A stretch of DNA of 64,000 bases from Thuidium tamariscinum (Eukaryota; Streptophyta; Bryopsida; Hypnales; Thuidiaceae): positions 22,551,489 through 22,615,488 of the forward strand of contig OX344756.2 in the NCBI GenBank assembly GCA_947034885.2, in the 5' to 3' direction. The notes below the pieces were generated by a model. That model was not told the DNA's origin and did not search any database. It saw only the letters and a list, made by a program, of their open reading frames with translations. Each line of letters opens with the position of its first letter. Within the stretch, counting starts at the first letter, position 1. The position numbers and the translations under genes were made by a program. This document shows positions 11,521-39,146 of the stretch, piece by piece.

Positions 11521-11679
11521 AGTGGAATTTTCCTGTTAGCCTGTGAGCTCATGCTTCCCTCGTGTGACTGCAGATTGACGATGATTACTCACAATTCTGC
11601 AGGCTGATCGCCATAGCCATAGCCTTGAGCCATTGTTTTCGGTGAGATTCTACTCTTGTCGCAGTGGTCTTTCGCCAAG

Positions 11680-12534
11680 ATGACGGAAGCAGGGAAGCCG
11701 TTCAACTGTCCAATTTGCCTCGAGCTAGCGTACAAGCCCGTCGTCCAAGGATGCGGCCACCTGTTTTGCTTCTGGTGCGTGCACAGATCAATGAACACTT
11801 CCACAGTCTCTCACTGTCCTGTCTGCCAAAAATCTTATGTGCACCTCGCCCGGATCTCCCCGCAGCTTCACCAGCTCCTCCAGGTCATCTACCCGCATGA
11901 TTACGAGTCTCGCACGCTGGAAATTTCAGCCGAAGAGAGGGACCAGAATCTCTACTCCCCCGAGATCGCTTCCTCTTCCTCAGGGCGGAGCCCTAGATCG
12001 GCCCTAAATTGCACGGTCTGCAAGAAGCTTCTCTACAAGCCCGTAGCGATGAATTGTGGGCACCTCATGTGCCAGGCTTGTGCAGCCGGCGGCCCAGCCA
12101 ACAGCTGCCGCGACTGCGGAGTCCATCATCCCGGTGCGTTCCCGCTTGTTTGCGTAGAACTGGAGCAGTATATAGAGAAAGAGTTCGGGAAAGATTATAA
12201 GTTGCGAGGCCAGGAAGTGAAGAACGGCGACAAGATGAGAGTTACAGTTGCCAGGTCGTGGAAGTCCCCGCCTGCGGATGACCCTCTCGACGTGGGCGTA
12301 GTGCAAAACCCCATCCACCCCAGCATTGGCTGTGATGGTTGTGGCATGATGCCCATTCTGGGAAGACGGTTCCATTGCCTGGACTGTCCGGAGAGCTGTG
12401 GCTACGACCTTTGCCAGACTTGCCACGATCGCGGGAGTAGCTTGCCCGGGCGGTTCAATCAGCGCCACGGGCCACGGCACCGCATGGAGGAACGTTCCTT
12501 GCGAAGCCCCTGGATCTTCGTGTGGGCTTGGTGA
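11680..12534 (+). CDS. PRT1: PRT1-like E3 ubiquitin ligase (two RING fingers plus ZZ finger)
   Basis: Encodes 284 residues in one uninterrupted frame. Domain order is RING 1 (C10, C13, C25, H27, C30, C33, C46, C49), RING 2 (C111, C114, C126, H128, C131, C134, C143, C146) and a ZZ zinc finger (C218, C221, C233, C236, C245, C248, H263, H267). This architecture is that of plant PROTEOLYSIS 1, the N-degron pathway ligase that in Arabidopsis recognises proteins with aromatic N-terminal residues and ubiquitinates them for proteasomal degradation. The linker after each RING and the 'PGRFNQ' stretch after the ZZ finger fit the family. ATG at 11680 is the first Met after an in-frame TGA at 11626-11628. 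Arabidopsis PRT1 is about 410 residues; this one has a much shorter inter-RING linker and stops about 17 residues after the ZZ finger. GC-rich third positions contrast with the AT-rich flanks. An additional upstream exon cannot be excluded. Confidence 0.85.
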
Positions 12535-16494: not shown

Positions 16495-16547
16495 TCTAAA
16501 CCCTAAACCCTAAATTAAAAAACCCTGAAACCCTAAACCCTAACAAC
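16495..16547. repeat. Interstitial plant-type telomere-like repeat
   Basis: Several CCCTAAA units, partly degenerate, lie in about 50 bp. CCCTAAA is the Arabidopsis-type plant telomere repeat on this strand. It could mark an old double-strand-break repair event or be a short regulatory 'telo box' cluster. Confidence 0.65.
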
Positions 16548-18295: not shown

Positions 18296-19335
18296 ATATA
18301 TTTGCCACATGTGTGAAAGTAATTTTCTGACACAGTTGAAGGACACATAGGAAAATCTAGTTGACTGAGTGCTGATTTTCACACGGTTCAGTTTTGGGTG
18401 CACCTATTGCACACTTTCAGTGGTTTAGGGAGCCATCACTTAAAAAAAACATAGAAATTACATACAATGTCCAAAAATTCTATTTCTTTTTTTGGATATT
18501 CATGATTTTCACTTGCTAATACTAGAAAAATATCAATTTTACGAAAATTTCCCTCCAACTATGCTGAATTCCTTATTTGGACGGTTTTGGGTGCTTCACT
18601 GTACAATCGTATTTGTTGAAATGGCATGTTTCAATGGCCAATAAAAGAGGGCATTCGAGTGCACAGCTAGAGATATGAAAAATTACCACTGCCGCAGCAG
18701 TGAAAATTGAGTTCTGGATGGGCGTGAATTTCTGGAAGTTATGCCATTTTATTGAATTATTTTATGACTTTTGTGGGACTGTGGGTATATACTGTGACTT
18801 ATATCTTACCTTGTACAGAGTTGGTCTGCATGGCACTGTCTTCTTACGCTGTATAATTGCATGCATGAACACGTGGGCCCTGGAATCCACGTCCCCAGAA
18901 CATTATGCACTCATGACCTGCCTGCTGGGCATGCAGGTTGGAAGGTGAATATCAGGGTGTCTTTTTTTTCATTTCTTGTGAAGTGCCAAAGTGGCGATAT
19001 TTCATTTTATTGTGGAGCTCCAAATCTCAACATTCATCCATATATTGGATAGAAAATATCATTTTAGCACATAATACATATCTATCATTCTATTTTCATT
19101 CATTATTTGGCAATTTCATTCACTATTTTTTTTTAAAAAATTTGAAGTTTATTGGTGATTTCATCTAAACTTTTACTATTTTTTTCCTATAGGCATGGTG
19201 CCAGGCCAAAAAATTTGGTGCAATTTTGCACCAATTCGCTAGAAAAAAAACCCTGGTGAATATCCACCAAATAGTAACTTAATTGTCTACTTCTTAGGAG
19301 GCAAGGGAAATGACCCACAAAGAGTCCACCTGGTT
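18296..19335. other. Intergenic, no gene recognised
   Basis: An 82-codon forward frame (18700-18948) has no recognisable domain and no supporting signals. The region near 19020-19180 resembles 21420-21560 (cues 'acattcatc', 'ggatagaaaat', 'ggcaatttcat'), indicating another dispersed repeat. Confidence 0.35.
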
Positions 19336-19600
19336 CATTAGAAGAAATCTAAGGGCATTACAAGGCCGTTTCGGGTCTGTTCTCGAAACGGCTCCCAATG
19401 CCGCCAGCCGTTGTCAGGTTGGCTTTAATATAAAAAATAAAAAATAAAAAATAAAAATTTGGGTCCTGAAATATGAAAATAAGTCAAAAAAATTTGATTT
19501 TTTTTATTATGTGCCAAGGGCACAACCACGTAGGATTCGAGTTCACAAGGCAGAAACAACGTTCTTGTAGTCTCCTAATGCCCTCAAATTTCATCTAATG
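19336..19600. mobile_element. CATTAG-terminus MITE, copy 2
   Basis: A 265 bp element with ends CATTAGAAGAAATCTAAGGG and the complement of CATTAGATGAAATTTGAGGG. An internal short inverted repeat (gtttcgggtctgttctcgaaac) and a 'gggtcctgaaatatgaaaat' block are shared with 36432-36730. No clear target duplication. Non-coding. Confidence 0.7.
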
Positions 19601-24751: not shown

Positions 24752-25345
24752 GAGAAGCTCTCTATATACACATGAGGTTGTAGGAGGTAGAACAACCCAT
24801 GTGGGATATGTAATTTAGAAGTTGTAGGAGCTTAACTACTCATAGTTAAGTTTGAAATAAGAATTGTGTTAAGACAAAAATTTCAGACCTCATTTAGGCA
24901 TAGTAAAATGAATTTTTGCAAAAATCTTTGAACTAAGTTTAGTTAGAAAACTAAGTTAAGTTTCATACTCAAAAATCCGTTTGAGATTTTGAGCATCCAA
25001 TAAAAAGTTATGGACAAATTTCAAAGAAAATGTTTGAAAAGATTAAAAAAAATTCCCTTCCAACACCTCTTTGGAATTTGTCAATAACTTTTGATTGGAT
25101 GTTCAAAATCTCAAATGGATTTTTGGACATAAAACCTAACTTGATTTACTAACTTATTTTATACAAATTTTTTTAGCAAAAATTTATTCTTCTATGCCTA
25201 AATGAGGTCTAAAGTTTTTATTTTAACATAATTCTTTTTTCAAACTTAACTATAAGTGGTTGAGCTCCTACAACTTCTATATTACATGTCCCATATCGGT
25301 TGTTCTACCTCTTATTGCCCCATATACAGAGAGAGAGAGAGAGAG
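24752..25345. mobile_element. Foldback element, family FB, copy 2
   Basis: Two long arms of about 270 bp are imperfect inverted repeats: for example 'tgggatatgtaatttagaag' in the left arm pairs with 'cttctatattacatgtccca' in the right. The centre (about 25030-25070) is asymmetric, so this copy has a real spacer. The right terminus runs into a GA tract (25327-25348) where a 3.7 kb insertion begins. Non-coding; transcription would give a long hairpin RNA. Confidence 0.75.
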
Positions 25346-25348
25346 AAG
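25327..25348. repeat. GA microsatellite, junction 1
   Basis: A run of about ten GA units at the left edge of the tandem unit A. The related FB copy at 49370-49976 has only a short 'gaagagctt' in its place, so the tract has expanded at, or come with, the insertion. Confidence 0.8.
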
Positions 25349-27111
25349 ACAGATCTAGTCACCCCATGTCTGGGCTCTTTCTTTCAATTCAACGTCAAGA
25401 CAGTGTTCTTTCTTTATCGACATGGTTAATCTCTTAGTTATGATCTTTTGTAACACCGATCAAGAGACTATCGATTTATCCCTGTTTACTCGAGATCATG
25501 TACACATCTGTGCTTCATCAGACTTTATTTTACAAATCGGGTTATGTCGATTTGAATTCGGGAAGGAGGGTGGGCTCATACATATCCTATTGCTTATTTC
25601 TGTTTTCAGCAAGACCCAGGCATGCATATCGCACTATCATCCTTCGTTTGTTTGTACGAAACCACCGATTCTAGTTTCTCAGCCTTACAGCATCTTACAA
25701 TATCGATATGCTTTCAGGAGTGAACAAACCTCTCACGTTCTTGAATGTACCGGTATCCAGATTACATCTGGTTTATACTAAATGGTATTAAGTATGTTAC
25801 GGTACATACTTTTTCTGACCATAAATCGTGATTACTCGAATAAGATTTCATTTCAATCAACAAGATATCAGTAAGGCATTCTCAGATGGTCGAAGCATAG
25901 TGTATATCTGTTAAAGAATCATACAAGATTTACAAAACGCATATGTTTTAATCACTTTACACGTAGAAGTGTATTCTGACTCCTGTTTGATCGATCGACC
26001 ATGTCGCATTCAGTCATAAGCGTAACAGATGCAAGAGGTAGGAATCATGTTCTCTTTAATATGAGCTGATCTACCTGTTCTCATGGACTCGACTTCAATG
26101 AGTTCCAATTGATCCATCAATCCATTTCATAATCTAACTGATTCATGAATCGATCATTAGCAATGTAGTTCGAATGAACTTGAACCCTGCGGTTTCAGGT
26201 ACGTAAGCACATGGTTTCTCAATCCCTACTGGATATGTATCGATTCTTAACTCTACAGCTAGATCACAGCGACATACTAATGTATTTTCAAACGAATGAT
26301 ATGTTTGAAGGGTAAGAAGACAAACAGCCTTAAGTTTTTAGAGCCTGGCCCCGATCTCAGGATGCCACGCCTCACCTGCGCCCATACATCCCAACATACA
26401 CAAAGTGTGTCAGAACGCGTACGCAAGGTGTCTGCAGCGTGCCATCGGTTGTTATCCCCATCAAAGATAAGTACTATGCAACTAAAAAACCTCAGAGCTG
26501 TCAAGAGAATCAACGTTACAAGAAATCGAAATTGTGATCCTCAATACTCCACAGCAAACAAACCACTCGTTCTCTCCTGATCGCAACACCACCAATATCG
26601 GCACCTGAGTAGACGTTGCTGTCTCCATGTCTGCTGGAGTTGTACGCGAGCACACCACCGTAGCTTGGGTGATCGTCAGCGTGACGCAAGTCTACAGCTC
26701 AACAGAGCTCAACAGCGCAGGTACACAGCACAAGAGGACTTGCAGGTTCTGCCGTGAGAGACAAGGTAGGCTCCAGGAGCCGATCAGTCTTCTTGGTTTA
26801 TATCCGTTGCATGGAAAGTGATAGCCGGGTATAAGCTCATGCCTGGGGATCATTGTCCTTTCTTTGGATGCGTTGTATTGGGGTAAGTGTATTACCTTGT
26901 ACGCATCTGTACCATTTTATCATCATAAATTGTGGCTTGCTAAACTTCTTGTTCTTATTTCAAAGGTGTTTTTAGTCCTTGGGTGGGACTTGCAATAATA
27001 CACTCATTTTTATGCCTTTCATAAAGTATCCAAATTTCAATTTGGAGTCATATGTAAGTATTGTGGTATGTGAATTTTTTTGTGTATCAATGGATTTGTC
27101 CATTGCATATT
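25349..27111. repeat. Purine-bounded tandem unit A (~1.76 kb)
   Basis: Aligns over its length with unit B (27209-28958) in the same orientation. Both start 'gacagatctagtcaccccat' and end '…atttgtccattgcata' next to a purine microsatellite. Overall similarity is around 80 percent, but 26305-26458 is almost identical between units. Forward frames (25422-25781, 119 codons; 26627-26821) and reverse frames (26277-26513) have no recognised domain. Class unknown. Confidence 0.75.
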
Positions 27112-27208
27112 TTGAGAGAGGGAGAGGGAGAGAGAGGGAGGGAGAGAGGGAGGGAGAGAGAGAGGGAGAGGGAGAGAGGGAGAGGGAGAGGGAGAGGGAG
27201 AGGGAGAG
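27112..27208. repeat. GGGAGA-type purine microsatellite, junction 2
   Basis: About 100 bp of uninterrupted purines on this strand (GGGAGA, GAGA and GGGAGGGA variants) between units A and B. Long Arg/Glu frames through it are a product of the repeat and not genes. Confidence 0.9.
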
Positions 27209-28958
27209 AGACAGATCTAGTCACCCCATGTCTGGGCTCTTTCTTTCAATTCATAGTCAAGACAGTACTCTTTTTTCCAACTGGACATTCTCTTAGTTAT
27301 GACCTTATGCAAAGCATATCAAGAGATTATCTACTGGTACTTGTTTACTCGGGATCATGTGCATATTTCATCAGTCTTTAATTTACAAATCGCGTTATGT
27401 CGACTTGAATTCGGGAGGGAGGGTGGGCACCGACATACCCTTTTGTTTATTTCTGTGATGGATCAGATCCAGATTCAAGTATGCATACGGTAAAATTAGC
27501 TTTCGATTGATTATACGAAAGTATCGATCTCGCATCTCACCAGCTTTACAGCGTGTATCGTATAGTCATCCTTTCAGAAGGAATGAGTACGCGAATGTTA
27601 CATTATCAGGATTACAACTAGTTTATGTAAGTGTGTTATAGCATGCACACTTTTTCTGACCATAATCGTGATTCTTGACTGAGACCTCATCTCAACTCAA
27701 AACAGCCAAACCGACAGTCTCAAATGGTTGATGCGTTGTGTATTTCCATTACAGAGCCATACAAGCTTTTAAATAACGCATATATTTCAAGCATGTAACA
27801 CGCAGAAGTGTCTTCTAACGTCTACCTGATCAACCATGTTGCATTTAATCTCAAGTATATCAGATGCAAGTGAGTGGAATCATGTATTTCATAGCACCTG
27901 AACTACTCGCTTACTCATAGTCTCAACCTTTATGAGTACCACCTGATTCATCGTTATTTGAAATCCTTTACATAAACTGACTGATTCATGAATAGTATCA
28001 TCAGCAATGTGTTTGTATAAACTTGAACCGTACTGTCTCAAGTTTGTGGGCACATGGTTTTCCGATCCTAAGAGGAAGCATACCGATTCTTGACTCTACT
28101 GCTAGATCCCTGCGACATACTACCGTAACTTCAAACGATTGAAATTTTTTGAAGGGTAAGAAGACAAACAGCCTCAAGTTTTAGAGCCTGGCCCCGATCT
28201 CAGGATGCCACGCCTCACCTGCGCCCATACATCCCAACATACACAAAGTTTGTCAGAACGCGTACGCAAGGTGTCTGCAGCGTGCCATCGGTTGTTATCC
28301 CTAGCGGAGATAAGTACTATGCAACTAAAAACCTCAGAGCTGTCATGAAAATCAGTGTCACAAGATCTTGCAAATGTGATCCTCAATACTCCACAGCACA
28401 TAAACCACTTGTTCTCTCTTGCTCGAATCAACAGCAATACAGGCACCTGAGTAGATGTTGCTGTCTCCATAACTGCAAGAGTTGTCTGCGAAAAAAACAC
28501 TGTAGCTTGGGTGATCGTCAGCGTGACGCAAGACCACAACAAAGCAGCGCAGGTACTCAGCACAAGAAGTCCGCAGGTTCTGCCGTGAGAGACAAGGTAC
28601 AAACCGCGTTATTTAGCTCCTGGAGCCGGTCAGTCTTCTTGGTTTATACCCGTTGGCATGGAAAGCGAAAGGGAAAGCCGGGTATGTGCTATTGTACTTT
28701 CTTTGTATGTGTCGTGTTAGGGTAAGTGTATTACCTTGTACGCATCTGTACTAATTGTATGATCATTTATCATCACAAATTGTGGCTTGTTTTACTCTTG
28801 TTCTTATTATCACAGCAGTTTTTAGTCCCCGAGTGGGACTTGCACTTATACACTCAATTTTGTGCCATTCATGAATTATCCAAAGATCAATTTGGAGTAA
28901 CATGTTAGTGTCGTTCTATGGGACTCTTTTTTTATGAATGGATTTGTCCATTGCATAG
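27209..28958. repeat. Purine-bounded tandem unit B
   Basis: Partner of 25349-27111. The forward frame 28282-28725 (147 codons) and reverse frame 28174-28602 (142 codons) arise in this copy but are not maintained at the same length in unit A, so neither is called as a gene. It ends directly in the third purine tract. Confidence 0.75.
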
Positions 28959-29090
28959 GGAGGGAGGGAGGGAGGGAGGGAGGGAGGGAGGGAGGGCGAG
29001 GGAGGGCGAGGGAGGGCGAGGGAGGGCGAGGGAGAGCGAGGGAGGGCGAGGGAGGGCAAGGGAGAGCGAGGGAGAGCGAGGGAGAGAGCT
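28959..29090. repeat. GGGA/GGGCGA purine-rich microsatellite, junction 3
   Basis: About 130 bp of GGGA units changing into GGGAGGGCGA and GGGAGAGCGA units. It ends in 'gagagagcttt', which matches the interrupted right terminus of the FB element. Repeat-derived frames on both strands are spurious. Confidence 0.9.
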
Positions 29091-34507: not shown

Positions 34508-34835
34508 TATATCTAAGGTAGAGGTATACATAGGTGATCACTTAAGCAATTTTCATACATATTGTGAGCAGTTTGGGGCAAGTGAAACTTTTTTCAAGTA
34601 GGAAGATAGGAAATATAGAGACTACATGTTTTTTCAGAATTTTATTCCCAAATCTGAAATTACTGTCATTTTTGGAAGCCAAAAAGTTGTCCAAACTAGT
34701 AGCCAATGTCTAGACTCTTCCAATTTCAATCACATGTAAACTAAGTACTTTCCTTCTAAATACTTCCTACAGACTTTCTTGCTCACTACTTTGGGACAGG
34801 GTTGTCATAACGGACGAGTCAGGGTCACCGGACGT

Positions 34836-34912
34836 CCCGGACGGACGGGCGAGGCGGACCGGACGGACGTCCCGGACGGACGGGCGAGGCGGACCGGACG
34901 GACGGACCGGAC
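34836..34912. repeat. Subterminal GC-rich repeats of the hAT-like element
   Basis: Tandem copies of a unit built from 'ggacgtcccggacggacggg' followed by 'cgaggcggacc'. Similar 'cggacgtcccggacggacgg' units lie at the other end (about 38936-38980). In hAT transposons subterminal repeats bind transposase; that role here is inferred from position only. Confidence 0.65.
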
Positions 34913-35140
34913 GGCTCCATTTTTCAAAGTAGTGGGATTTTTTTGCGTTGACACGTCAGCTTCGAAAACGAGATCTAGGGCGCGGACGTCTTCGTCAGGG
35001 CGCGGACTTCATCGTAACAGTGTCCAGGCGTGGACGCGTATAGGAAGGGCGTGGACTTCAATGTCAACTTCAGGGCGGGGACGTGAGACAAGGCGGGGAT
35101 GTGAAAAATGACAGGGCGCGGACGTCAACTTCTTTCTGCT

Positions 35141-35258
35141 TTTGCAATTGGAGTTCTCAGAATTTGGAGGCATGCAATATACCATTGGAAAGGTATTCAA
35201 AATACCTTTCCAATGGTATATTACACGCCTCTAAATTCTCAAAACTCCAATCACAAAT
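35141..35258. repeat. Nested hairpin 1 in the left arm
   Basis: About 55 bp imperfect arms ('aatataccattggaaaggta' and complement) with almost no spacer. A second version with the same arms is at 35399-35515, and mirrored versions lie at 38371-38487 and 38628-38745. Confidence 0.75.
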
Positions 35259-35398
35259 TGGAAAACAAATCTACTACTAAAATCCACTATGCAAAGAGTC
35301 CATGAGCAGGCGCGGACGCAAGGCCGGGCGGGGACGTCACGGCGGGGACGCAAAGACGGGCGCGGACGCTAGGGCGCAGACGTCAACTTTCTTCTGCT

Positions 35399-35515
35399 TT
35401 TGCGATTGGAGTTTTGGGAATCTAGGGGCATGTAATATACCATTGGAAAGATATTTTGAATACCTTTCCAATGGTATATTACACGCCCCCAGATTCTCAA
35501 AACTCCAATCGCAAA
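35399..35515. repeat. Nested hairpin 2 in the left arm
   Basis: Homologous to the hairpin at 35141-35258; arms pair through 'ccattggaaagatattttga' and the 'caaaactccaatcgcaaa' edges. The two hairpins are separated by GC-rich 'cgcggacg' repeats. Confidence 0.75.
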
Positions 35516-36431
35516 TTGAAAAACAAATCTGCTGGCAACATCCAGGGCGTGGACGCGAGGCAGGGCGGGGACGTCACGGCGCGGACGTGAGGCAGGGCGC
35601 GGACTTCAGGGCGCGGACGCGAGGCAAGGCGGGACCACAAACTGCGTGGGTGTTTTCAAATGGCCTTGGCCTTGGGATTCCTCTTCTTCACTAAACCCGC
35701 CCCCCCAAAAGGCCACATTAATTACTGTCAACTCATTTGTGCACGGTTGACTAGATCTCCAAGTACATGGAGGTCAAATGGACACATTAAGAACTCCACC
35801 TACCAACTACAACTTGCACAAGGGTGGAGGCCTTTGAGAGCTAAGTGCATTTCTCTCTCTTGTGGCCTAATTCCTCAAATCTTCTTTCTCACAAGACCAT
35901 GGATTCTTCATTCTTGAATTGAATCTTTGGGAACTTGGAGGGTAAAATAGTTCTTTTGTTTGTATTTGTTTTCCTCAATTTGATTCTTGAAGGCTTTGGA
36001 TGGGGTTATTAGAGGGTGATGTAGCCCTTGCTATTTATTTATACCAAAGCTTGGATATGTAGGTTATTTTTTGACTTTCTCTTATAGTAGTTTTACTTAA
36101 TTATTTATTGTGTAAATTCTAAAGAAGGGATTTAGTGAAGGGCGCGTCTTTTTCCATTGCTTTTTTAAGTAATTTGAATGAATGGTTTTTTTTCCCTTAC
36201 CATTTCTTTATTTTACTTTAGAAAGTGTGAAGAATTAATTAATAATAGTGGAGGCCCTTGTTCTTCATTTATTTTAGGGCGGTGTACAATTGGGTTCCCC
36301 TAGGGATTGTTCATTTAGTTATTGAATGCATGAAGGAGGGATTTGGAAGAGAGGAGGAGGTGACTTTGTTGTATTTCTTAAAATCTTGAAGTAGAGTTTT
36401 TAGTTCTTGAGGAATTTTTGTGTTTTTGGAT

Positions 36432-36730
36432 CATTAGATGAAATCTGAGGGCATTAGGAGACCGTTTCGGGTCTGTTCCCGAAACGGCTCCCAATGCCGC
36501 AGATCCTCGTCAGGCCGACTTTTATGGAAAAAAAAAAAAAAAAAAAATTTTTTTTTGGGTCCTGAAATATGAAAATAAGTCCAAAAAAAAATTTATTTTT
36601 TTGAAAAAAAAAATATATATATTACGTGGCAGTGTCCCGACCACGTAGGATTTGGGTTCACAGGGCAGAAACTGCGTTCCCGCAGTCCGGGAACCCGCAG
36701 TCTCCTAATGCCCTCAAATTTCTTCTAATG
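36432..36730. mobile_element. CATTAG-terminus MITE, copy 3 (nested in the hAT-like element)
   Basis: A 299 bp element with ends CATTAGATGAAATCTGAGGG and the complement of CATTAGAAGAAATTTGAGGG. It shares with 19336-19600 the short inverted repeat around 'gtttcgggtctgttcccgaaac' and the 'gggtcctgaaatatgaaaataag' block. A long A tract followed by a T tract lies near 36527-36557. It lies in the spacer and not in the arms, so its insertion did not disturb the palindrome. Confidence 0.75.
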
Positions 36731-37695
36731 CAATGTCTTAAAAAATGATACAATGGGGACCAAGGGCACTCTCTCCCCATTTTTCTTTCCATGTAGCATT
36801 TATATTGTTGAAGGGAATTTAGAATTTAATTTTTTAATGATTGAATGAAGGATTAATCACACAATTTTAGTATATCTCAATCCTTGAAGGTCACAATGGA
36901 TATATTTTTTTTTCCAAATTTTCAAAGGAAAGTCTTAGATACTCTTAACTTAAATTCAATAGCTCTTTTCTTTCTTTTCAATAAAATTCTATTGAGAGTT
37001 GAGTTTAGCTTGAATAAAAGACAACCTTTCTCCCAATTGCAAGAAGAAAGACAAAAATTAGGTAAAACTAATATTTTCCATTTATCCTATTGACACAATT
37101 AATTGTATAGTTATCTAGAATATGAAATAACATTGATTTCTATGATACAAAGAAATAAATTTAAATGATTAAAATGCCTCCACTTTAGTTTCATCCTTTT
37201 TATATTCACAATTAGATGTTGAACCAAACTTAGGCAACATATAATCTTTCTTTCCATTCAAAGAAAAATTTAATTGAATTCAATCCATTAATAAAATAAT
37301 TCAAGTGCCTCTCGTCTTGTTCCTTCTTTTCTATTCAAACAATAACTTGAATCAAGCAAAGCTAGGTATAAGCTTCAGCATTAATGGATAAAAGTATAGA
37401 AGAAACCTTCACAATCCTTTTCAATGGACTTGGGGCAATGAGATTCTTCTTCTCCCTAAAATCAAAAAATTACTTTCATGTTGCGAGGTAATATTTGTAC
37501 TAGAGACCAAATCTAGAAGTCCATGATGCTGAAATGGCCATATTAAATAATTCGCCTACCTCAATCATTAAAAGGATTGGAAAAGGCATGCATTCTTAAT
37601 TTTGGGGCCTACCTTTCTATGTCTTGTTTCTATCCAAGCACCTTGCTACTTCAATTTTCAACTCAATACCAAAACTTTTAAAGGGACACTTTAAG
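36731..37695. other. AT-rich spacer of the hAT-like inverted repeat
   Basis: No domain-bearing frame; the 69-codon forward frame at 36884-37093 has no recognisable features. This is where a transposase gene would be expected in an autonomous element, and none is visible. Confidence 0.5.
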
Positions 37696-38815
37696 AAAAA
37701 CCATTCATTCAAATTACTTAAAAAAGCAATGGAAAAAGACGCGCCCTTCACTAAATCCCTTCTTTAGAATTTACACAATAAATAATTAAGTAAAACTACT
37801 ATAAGAGAAAGTCAAAAAATAACCTACATATCCAAGCTTTGGTATAAATAAATAGCAAGGGCTACATCACCCTCTAATAACCCCATCCAAAGCCTTCAAG
37901 AATCAAATTGAGGAAAACAAATACAAACAAAAGAACTATTTTACCCTCCAAGTTCCCAAAGATTCAATTCAAGAATGAAGAATCCATGGTCTTGTGAGAA
38001 AGAAGATTTGAGGAATTAGGCCACAAGAGAGAGAAATGCACTTAGCTCTCAAAGGCCTCCACCCTTGTGCAAGTTGTAGTTGGTAGGTGGAGTTCTTAAT
38101 GTGTCCATTTGACCTCCATGTACTTGGAGATCTAGTCAACCGTGCACAAATGAGTTGACAGTAATTAATGTGGCCTTTTGGGGGGGCGGGTTTAGTGAAG
38201 AAGAGGAATCCCAAGGCCAAGGCCATTTGAAAACACCCACGCAGTTTGTGGTCCCGCCTTGCCTCGCGTCCGCGCCCTGAAGTCCGCGCCCTGCCTCACG
38301 TCCGCGCCGTGACGTCCCCGCCCTGCCTCGCGTCCACGCCCTGGATGTTGCCAGCAGATTTGTTTTTCAATTTGCGATTGGAGTTTTGAGAATCTGGGGG
38401 CGTGTAATATACCATTGGAAAGGTATTCAAAATATCTTTCCAATGGTATATTACATGCCCCTAGATTCCCAAAACTCCAATCGCAAAAGCAGAAGAAAGT
38501 TGACGTCTGCGCCCTAGCGTCCGCGCCCGTCTTTGCGTCCCCGCCGTGACGTCCCCGCCCGGCCTTGCGTCCGCGCCTGCTCATGGACTCTTTGCATAGT
38601 GGATTTTAGTAGTAGATTTGTTTTCCAATTTGTGATTGGAGTTTTGAGAATTTAGAGGCGTGTAATATACCATTGGAAAGGTATTTTGAATACCTTTCCA
38701 ATGGTATATTGCATGCCTCCAAATTCTGAGAACTCCAATTGCAAAAGCAGAAAGAAGTTGACGTCCGCGCCCTGTCATTTTTCACGTCCCCGCCCTGTCT
38801 CACGTCCCCGCCTTG
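37696..38815. repeat. Right arm of the ~1.1 kb inverted repeat
   Basis: Reverse complement of 35071-36190. It contains mirrored hairpins at 38371-38487 and 38628-38745. Beyond 38815 the two sides diverge, although both return to GGACG-type subterminal repeats before the TIR. Confidence 0.85.
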
Positions 38816-39146
38816 TTTAGTTGTGTCCGCGCCCGTGGTGTCTAGGTGGCATGAATTTAAATCCACGTGGATTTTTTATTACCTTTTAAAAAAGTCAACT
38901 ATGTGTTGACCCTATCGGACGGGCGAGAGCTCTATCGGACGTCCCGGACGGACGGACGGGCGAACCGGACGTCCGCCCAGTATGACAACCCTGCTTTGGG
39001 ACACGTGTTATGATCTTATTGGGCCCAACCTTGAAATGGAGGAAAAATTACATTCCAAGCTTTGGTTGGAAATATGTTCTAAGAAGTAGTTGCATTCTAC
39101 TTGTTGAATATGGGTCTATAGTTAGGAATGGGTGATCCTACCTTAA

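What the first reader, a model, noticed from the sequence alone, without database searches (positions are those of the whole stretch)
34797..38993. Complete 4.2 kb hAT-like element that is almost entirely a giant foldback
Seen: 13 bp perfect TIRs (CAGGGTTGTCATA), an 8 bp target duplication (CTTTGGGA), GGACG-type subterminal repeats, and two ~1.1 kb arms that pair without an indel around a 1.5 kb spacer. Known: CA-G-G termini plus 8 bp duplications define hAT transposons. Unusual: a hAT element with kilobase arms and no transposase is not the usual internal-deletion derivative. Identity of the arms implies a recent origin or continuing homogenisation. Transcription across it would give a long double-stranded RNA.
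Basis: partly seen in the sequence, partly recalled or inferred. Interest (0 to 1): 0.75.

Follow-up and report, generated by a model that had tools for sequence, protein, structure and literature searches.

The report
Foldback-like transposon with a flipping core
This is one of at least 25 copies of a jumping DNA element, probably in a plant, that seems to make no protein of its own and whose two long mirror-image arms appear to exchange sequence, so that the piece between them faces either way in different copies; it matters as a case of a transposon apparently reshaped by recombination inside itself.

Summary
Window 34797-38993 is a complete 4,197-bp insertion with perfect 13-bp TIRs and an 8-bp duplication. 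The arms are 1,123 bp without an indel but differ at 4 sites, fill about half of the element, and lie 274 and 178 bp in from the ends.

It is a family. Of 25 copies read, 21 have perfect 8-bp duplications, 2 have one mismatch, 2 none. Ten ORFs of one copy gave no convincing Pfam match.

New here: (1) the core lies one way in 10 copies and the other way in 15, with matching junctions, and orientation is unlinked to core phylogeny (9 changes, shuffled mean 8.1). (2) 51 of 65 arms have an arm of their own element as a nearest tip (shuffled mean 4.3). (3) Thirteen copies carry a second core module in several arrangements. (4) One copy with two right ends joins flanks of two others.

Best reading: a non-autonomous hAT-like element moved in trans, whose arms recombine; crossover flips the core, conversion homogenises the arms. 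The transposase was not found. Closest analogue: Galileo.

The parts
34789..34796 (.). left 8-bp target site duplication CTTTGGGA
34797..34809 (+). left 13-bp terminal inverted repeat CAGGGTTGTCATA
34797..35070 (+). left end module (274 bp), GGACG-rich subterminal repeats; length varies among copies
35071..36193 (+). left arm, 1,123 bp; outer half with GCGNGGACG repeats and two hairpin units, inner 559 bp used for the arm comparisons
35141..35257 (+). 117-nt near-palindromic hairpin unit inside the left arm
35399..35515 (+). second 117-nt near-palindromic hairpin unit inside the left arm
36194..37692 (+). spacer = core module A (1,199 bp without the nested insertion); this orientation in 10 of 25 copies, the other in 15
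36432..36731 (.). nested MITE-like insertion with about 31-bp inverted ends, absent from the other 24 copies read; not part of the family structure
37693..38815 (-). right arm, inverted copy of the left arm, 4 mismatches, no indel
38371..38487 (-). hairpin unit in the right arm
38629..38745 (-). hairpin unit in the right arm
38816..38993 (+). right end module (178 bp), GGACG-type subterminal repeats
38981..38993 (-). right 13-bp terminal inverted repeat
38994..39001 (.). right 8-bp target site duplication CTTTGGGA

Best explanation
It is a non-autonomous cut-and-paste DNA transposon of hAT-like type, mobilised in trans by a hAT transposase made elsewhere in the genome (inferred). Its kilobase inverted arms are homologous-recombination substrates lying inside the functional ends. 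Pairing of the two arms of one element gives two outcomes: crossover inverts the core between them without touching the ends or the target duplication; non-crossover conversion copies mutations from arm to arm and keeps them alike. Recombination between directly repeated arms in the longer copies, or exchange with sister chromatids or other copies, would add or remove the second core module B and make tandem, mirrored and two-right-ended forms. Shown: copies, duplications, both core orientations with matching junctions, orientation unlinked to core phylogeny, private mutations shared by arms of one element, several modular forms, one copy lying between flanks of two other insertions. Inferred: the hAT transposase, intra-element crossover as the flipping event, and whether it happens in place or around transposition.
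For: 8-bp duplications perfect in 21 of 25 copies, one mismatch in 2, none in 2. Core A orientation 10 versus 15 (24 copies with one left and one right end: 10 versus 14); junctions match in all 25 apart from small differences in the adjoining T/A run. Orientation needs 9 changes on the core tree, bootstrap range 7-9, at least 4 forced by well-supported branches, shuffled mean 8.1. Presence of module B needs 8 changes, bootstrap 7-9, at least 3 forced, shuffled mean 8.6. Whole arms of 15 copies: mean difference 0.46% within, 1.31% between copies (two copies with part of an arm only). Inner arms, 65 of 25 copies: 0.36% within and 1.04% between, 0 of 500 shuffles as low; 30 private alleles shared by two or more arms of one element, 24 in a single arm; without five more diverged copies 0.33 and 0.65%, and left-left, right-right and left-right distances between elements 0.665, 0.657 and 0.664%. 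51 of 65 arms have an arm of the same element as a nearest tip, ties allowed, shuffled mean 4.3, largest 14 of 200 shuffles. Two-right-ended copy J027 shares its left flank with J011 (1 mismatch in 561) and its right flank with J028 (8 mismatches, 1 gap in 7,843). The genome has at least 150 hAT dimerisation-domain matches (150 of 714 candidates scored), all but one without a stop inside.
Against: No autonomous element with these ends was found. None of the 150 listed hAT-domain matches falls inside a copy read here (compared by eye), and the genome-wide search for the TIR pattern did not complete. The 21 perfect duplications show only a weak T at position 2 / A at position 7 (19 of 42, p 0.10 against an assumed 32.5%), so an Ac-type target preference is not shown. 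The core tree is shallow (4 of 22 inner branches well supported, bootstrap not settled), and conversion of cores between copies could mimic repeated flips. No locus was seen in both orientations. For J027 the wider left flank is only 97.3% like that of J011 and partly repetitive, and its inside is less like J011 and J028 than the near flanks are (96.4 to 99.6% in the main matches), so one recent exchange does not explain it fully. One assembly only, no reads.
Confidence: 0.75

Rival explanations
1. Two or more old source elements with opposite core orientation, each amplified by ordinary transposition; arms look alike only because the family is young.
For: The family is fairly young (mean core difference 0.80% among 20 of 25 copies) and many core-tree branches are weak.
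Against: Orientation is scattered on the core tree no better than shuffled labels, with at least 4 changes forced by well-supported branches. Private arm mutations are shared by arms of one element in 30 of 54 cases, and left and right arms form no separate lineages.
Confidence: 0.1
2. Flips and arm likeness arise by template switching during gap repair after excision (SDSA) rather than by crossover in place. This overlaps with the best explanation, which leaves the timing open.
For: Mirrored and tandem core forms, and arms truncated at arm position 291 next to B in the longer copies, look like copied segments. The Galileo authors propose repair by ectopic copying for the same kind of arm extension (PMC3573991, passages).
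Against: By my inference it does not predict both orientations with matching junctions in similar numbers as naturally as crossover does. Not separable from crossover with one assembly.
Confidence: 0.35
3. Assembly artefact: inverted arms mis-joined so that cores are placed at random.
For: Only the assembly was available, and one region (C6: 24.93, 25.56, 25.76 Mb) has near-identical flanks.
Against: No N in the ten long loci checked (six stitched, four single; the other loci were not counted). 21 of 25 copies have their own perfect duplication. Several copies have private mutations shared by their arms.
Confidence: 0.06
4. A Mutator-type element, the usual kind of plant transposon with long inverted repeats.
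For: Long arms and multiple arms recall MULEs with multiple long TIRs (PMC3310237, abstract and section list).
Against: Duplications are 8 bp, not the 9 bp typical of MULEs (recalled); the terminal repeat is 13 bp with a CAGGG start.
Confidence: 0.06

Closest known systems
Galileo (Drosophila foldback-like element, P superfamily)
   Same: Long arms very alike within a copy; recruitment of internal sequence into the arms; tandem repeats; chimeric copies with non-matching target duplications; ectopic recombination between copies (PMC3573991 and PMC4168063, passages; PMC2775673, abstract).
   Different: Galileo has 7-bp duplications and P-type transposase copies. Here 8 bp, a probable plant host, no transposase recognised, arms inside distinct end modules, and two core orientations, which the Galileo passages that I saw do not mention.
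hAT superfamily non-autonomous elements (Ds-like elements, hAT MITEs; recalled)
   Same: 8-bp duplications, short TIR with CAGGG start, subterminal repeats.
   Different: Kilobase inverted arms and core modules with no recognised transposase remnant.
Insertion-sequence inversions by TIR-TIR recombination in Wolbachia (PMC3004938, abstract)
   Same: Recombination between inverted repeats of one transposon flips its inside while the flanks stay put.
   Different: Bacterial, in 9% of the loci that they investigated; here 10 against 15 copies in the two orientations.
MULEs with multiple long TIRs in plants (PMC3310237, abstract)
   Same: Plant elements with extra tandem copies of a long repeat.
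   Different: Other superfamily; there the extra copies are terminal repeats, here internal arms.
Chloroplast genome inverted-repeat isomers (PMC7145664, search listing only)
   Same: Works alike: inverted repeats go with single-copy regions in both orientations.
   Different: Organelle genome, not a transposon.

Membership tests
hAT superfamily | 8-bp target site duplication | tested here: met
   21 of 25 perfect, 2 of 25 with one mismatch, 2 of 25 none
hAT superfamily | short TIR of the form YARNG, here CAGGG (consensus recalled) | tested here: met
   ends of all 25 copies printed; a few vary (e.g. CAGGATT at the left end of L014, CAAGGTT at the right end of L035)
hAT superfamily | subterminal repeats near both ends | tested here: met
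   GGACG clusters at both ends of the window copy
hAT superfamily | moved by a transposase with a hAT dimerisation domain | tested here: inconclusive
   10 ORFs of copy L014 had no convincing Pfam match; at least 150 hAT-domain matches in the genome, none inside a copy read; TIR pattern search did not complete; 901 bp 3' of four hAT domains held no such TIR, but the coding frame may run on there
Foldback elements (structural class) | long, internally repetitive inverted arms making up much of the element | tested here: met
   2,246 of 4,197 bp in arms, tandem subrepeats
Foldback elements (structural class) | arms reach the element ends (recalled) | tested here: not met
   arms start 274 and 178 bp inside; hence 'foldback-like' only
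Galileo / P superfamily | 7-bp target duplication (PMC3573991, passage) | tested here: not met
   8 bp here
Galileo / P superfamily | P-type transposase | not tested
   no transposase found in the family to compare
Mutator-like elements | about 9-bp target duplication (recalled) | tested here: not met
   8 bp

The most novel reading that the evidence does not exclude
The inverted arms are a maintained part of the element's life cycle rather than an accident: each round of transposition-linked repair re-copies arm onto arm and re-draws core orientation and module content, so the family evolves as a self-rearranging system whose palindromy is kept by selection (for example for transposase binding over repeat arrays reaching about 0.8 kb in from each end, or for hairpin RNA).
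Probability: 0.15. Interest if true: 0.75.

Novelty: new variant of a known kind. Interest (0 to 1): 0.5.

Why it matters
One assembly gives three signs of recombination inside a transposon, probably in a plant: cores in both orientations, private mutations shared by the arms of one element, and shuffled modules, while 21 of 25 copies keep perfect target duplications. If this holds in reads, each copy is a natural assay for inverted-repeat recombination and conversion, and copies can also sit at larger rearrangements, as J027 suggests.

Tried and rejected
Coding capacity: one search listed 33 ORFs of 60 aa or more in locus L014 (flanks included); 10 from A, B, arms and left end were scanned with Pfam, best E 0.016 (Helicase_C_3, below cut-off) and 0.25. 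B of other copies was not scanned. No Rfam family at gathering score and no tRNA in the window. Ac-like target motif: weak only. A second TIR-like word in L026 (2 mismatches allowed) lies in its flank, inside an unrelated-looking ORF, and was taken as chance. The TIR word in papers: 3 papers, none on transposons by title and abstract opening. Paper searches listed, by titles and abstract openings, no plant hAT foldback family with two core orientations; the library is open-access PMC only and these papers were not read through, so this is not proof of absence. Dating by arm divergence was dropped because the arms are homogenised. One search (module B query, 40 of 224 candidates scored) gave further loci, e.g. 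on C9, C10, C11, and by coordinates further tandem (C6:25.14 Mb) and mirrored (C2:39.85 Mb) pairs, not read as sequence.
Full report
Check of the observation. The window holds a complete insertion at 34797-38993: 13-bp terminal inverted repeats, an 8-bp duplication CTTTGGGA on both sides, and two 1,123-nt arms that pair without an indel around a 1,499-nt spacer. The arms differ at 4 positions, all transitions. They begin 274 bp and 178 bp inside the ends. The spacer contains a 300-bp nested MITE-like insertion (36432-36731) that the other 24 copies read lack; the empty site was printed for two of them, L009 and L017. A 74% alike relative of that insertion lies at 19331-19600.

The family. The left 1.2 kb finds 130 matches in the window's own genome, 363 Mb in 19 contigs (only 40 of 708 first-look candidates were scored, so this is a lower bound). 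I fetched 20 loci and ten more stretches. With the window this gives 25 copies with both ends. Duplications are perfect in 21, have one mismatch in 2 (L036, L038), and do not match in 2 (J011, J027). J names are stretches stitched from two neighbouring loci (J011 = L011+L029, J016 = L016+L030, J022 = L022+L031, J025 = L025+L032, J027 = L027+L033, J028 = L028+L034). A plant host is inferred from a protein with two RING fingers and a ZZ finger at 11629-12531 (likeness to plant PRT1 is recalled) and a CTAAACC tract at 16496-16543 (plant telomere type is recalled).

Anatomy. Module names are mine: left end, arm a, core A (1,199 bp), core B (2,152 bp), truncated arm a' (arm 291 to 1123), right end. 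Twelve copies are simple (left, a, A, inverted a, right). Thirteen also carry B with a': five as left-a-B-a'-A(inverted)-a(inverted)-right (L014, J016, L024, L037, L038); four with that inside reversed (L013, L026, J011, J025); one with A alone turned (L023); one with B in direct tandem (J022, 10.0 kb); one mirrored (J028, 9.9 kb); and one mirrored with two right ends (J027). In J025 and L038, B is itself rearranged. A later search with 1,741 bp of B gave 24 matches over the whole query, many in copies already read, and by coordinates a further tandem pair (C6:25.14 Mb) and a further mirrored pair (C2:39.85 Mb) (40 of 224 candidates scored). B has inverted ends of its own, mostly 84-86% alike, and some more diverged copies have a further inverted stretch about 81% alike, so inverted duplication may have happened more than once.

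Two core orientations. Core A has the window's orientation in 10 copies and the other in 15 (J027 has two right ends, so 10 against 14 where orientation is defined). The arm/core junctions match in both states in all 25, apart from small differences in the adjoining T/A run. On a tree of the 25 cores orientation needs 9 changes (bootstrap 7-9; at least 4 forced by well-supported branches; shuffled mean 8.1), and presence of B needs 8 (bootstrap 7-9; at least 3 forced; shuffled mean 8.6). The tree is shallow, with 4 of 22 inner branches well supported and the bootstrap not settled, and conversion of cores between copies could add apparent changes. The plain reading is repeated inversion by exchange between the arms.

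Homogenised arms. On whole arms of 15 copies the mean difference is 0.46% within and 1.31% between copies (two copies gave part of an arm only). In the inner 559 nt, 65 arms of 25 copies differ by 0.36% within and 1.04% between copies (0 of 500 shuffles as low). Leaving out five more diverged copies the figures are 0.33 and 0.65%, and left-left, right-right and left-right distances between copies are 0.665, 0.657 and 0.664%. Thirty private alleles are shared by two or more arms of one copy and 24 are in a single arm. On a tree, 51 of 65 arms have an arm of the same copy as a nearest tip, ties allowed (200 shuffles: mean 4.3, largest 14). If arms had descended separately since one duplication, left arms should group with left arms; they do not.

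Exchange between copies. J027 has two right ends and no matching duplication. Its near left flank matches J011 (1 mismatch in 561 bp) and its right flank matches J028 (8 mismatches and 1 gap in 7,843 bp); all three lie on contig C6 between 24.9 and 25.8 Mb. Against a simple story: further out the J011 match falls to 97.3% and runs into repeats, J027 is less like J011 and J028 inside the element than in the near flanks (main matches 96.4 to 99.6%), and J011 itself has no matching duplication. I claim only that J027 lies between flanks of two other insertions. Its core differs from that of J028 at 4 and from that of J011 at 7 of 1,201 positions.

Mechanism. Shown: a mobile family with 8-bp duplications, both core orientations, shared arm mutations, shuffled modules, one chimeric setting. 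Inferred: a hAT transposase in trans, and crossover or conversion between arms, in place or during repair around transposition. The genome has at least 150 hAT dimerisation-domain matches (150 of 714 candidates scored), many in open frames of 1,061 or 1,118 aa, so a source of transposase is plausible, but none lies in a copy read here. By eye the nearest are about 8 kb outside copy L017 and about 13 kb from a B match at C6:25.37 Mb whose copy I have not read. The ends downstream of four hAT domains showed no such TIR within 901 bp, which settles nothing because the coding frame may run on there.

Comparison. It works like Galileo of Drosophila, which shows recruited internal sequence, tandem repeats and chimeric copies without matching duplications (PMC3573991, passages; PMC4168063, passages; PMC2775673, abstract), and like the TIR-TIR inversions of bacterial insertion sequences (PMC3004938, abstract). 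It is not Galileo: duplications are 8 bp, not 7. Filing it as hAT-like rests on duplication length, terminus and subterminal repeats; the transposase test is open. Arms that do not reach the ends make it foldback-like rather than a foldback element in the strict sense. I rate it a new variant of a known kind.

Noticed in passing
window 36432-36731 and 19331-19600: MITE-like repeat with about 31-bp inverted ends, nested in the element's spacer; a second, 74% alike copy elsewhere in the window.
   Followed up: partly
genome G000: At least 150 hAT dimerisation-domain matches, many with open frames of exactly 1,061 or 1,118 aa, which would fit recently active hAT families.
   Followed up: partly
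C6 24.93-25.76 Mb (L027, L028, L011 and neighbours): Cluster of large copies with shared flanks, one with two right ends: a rearrangement hotspot or recent segmental duplication.
   Followed up: partly
L014:2030-4181 (module B): B carries inverted ends of its own (mostly 84-86% alike), and some more diverged copies a further 81% inverted stretch: possible traces of earlier foldback formation.
   Followed up: no
window 35141-35257 and 35399-35515: Two 117-nt near-palindromic hairpins per arm (predicted -65.9 and -82.8 kcal/mol as RNA).
   Followed up: partly
window 16496-16543: Short CTAAACC tract, like a plant-type telomere repeat (type recalled).
   Followed up: no
window 11629-12531: Open frame with two RING fingers and a ZZ finger, perhaps a PRT1-like ubiquitin ligase (likeness recalled).
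   Followed up: partly
window 25329-29054: Direct duplication of about 1.9 kb, 76% alike.
   Followed up: no
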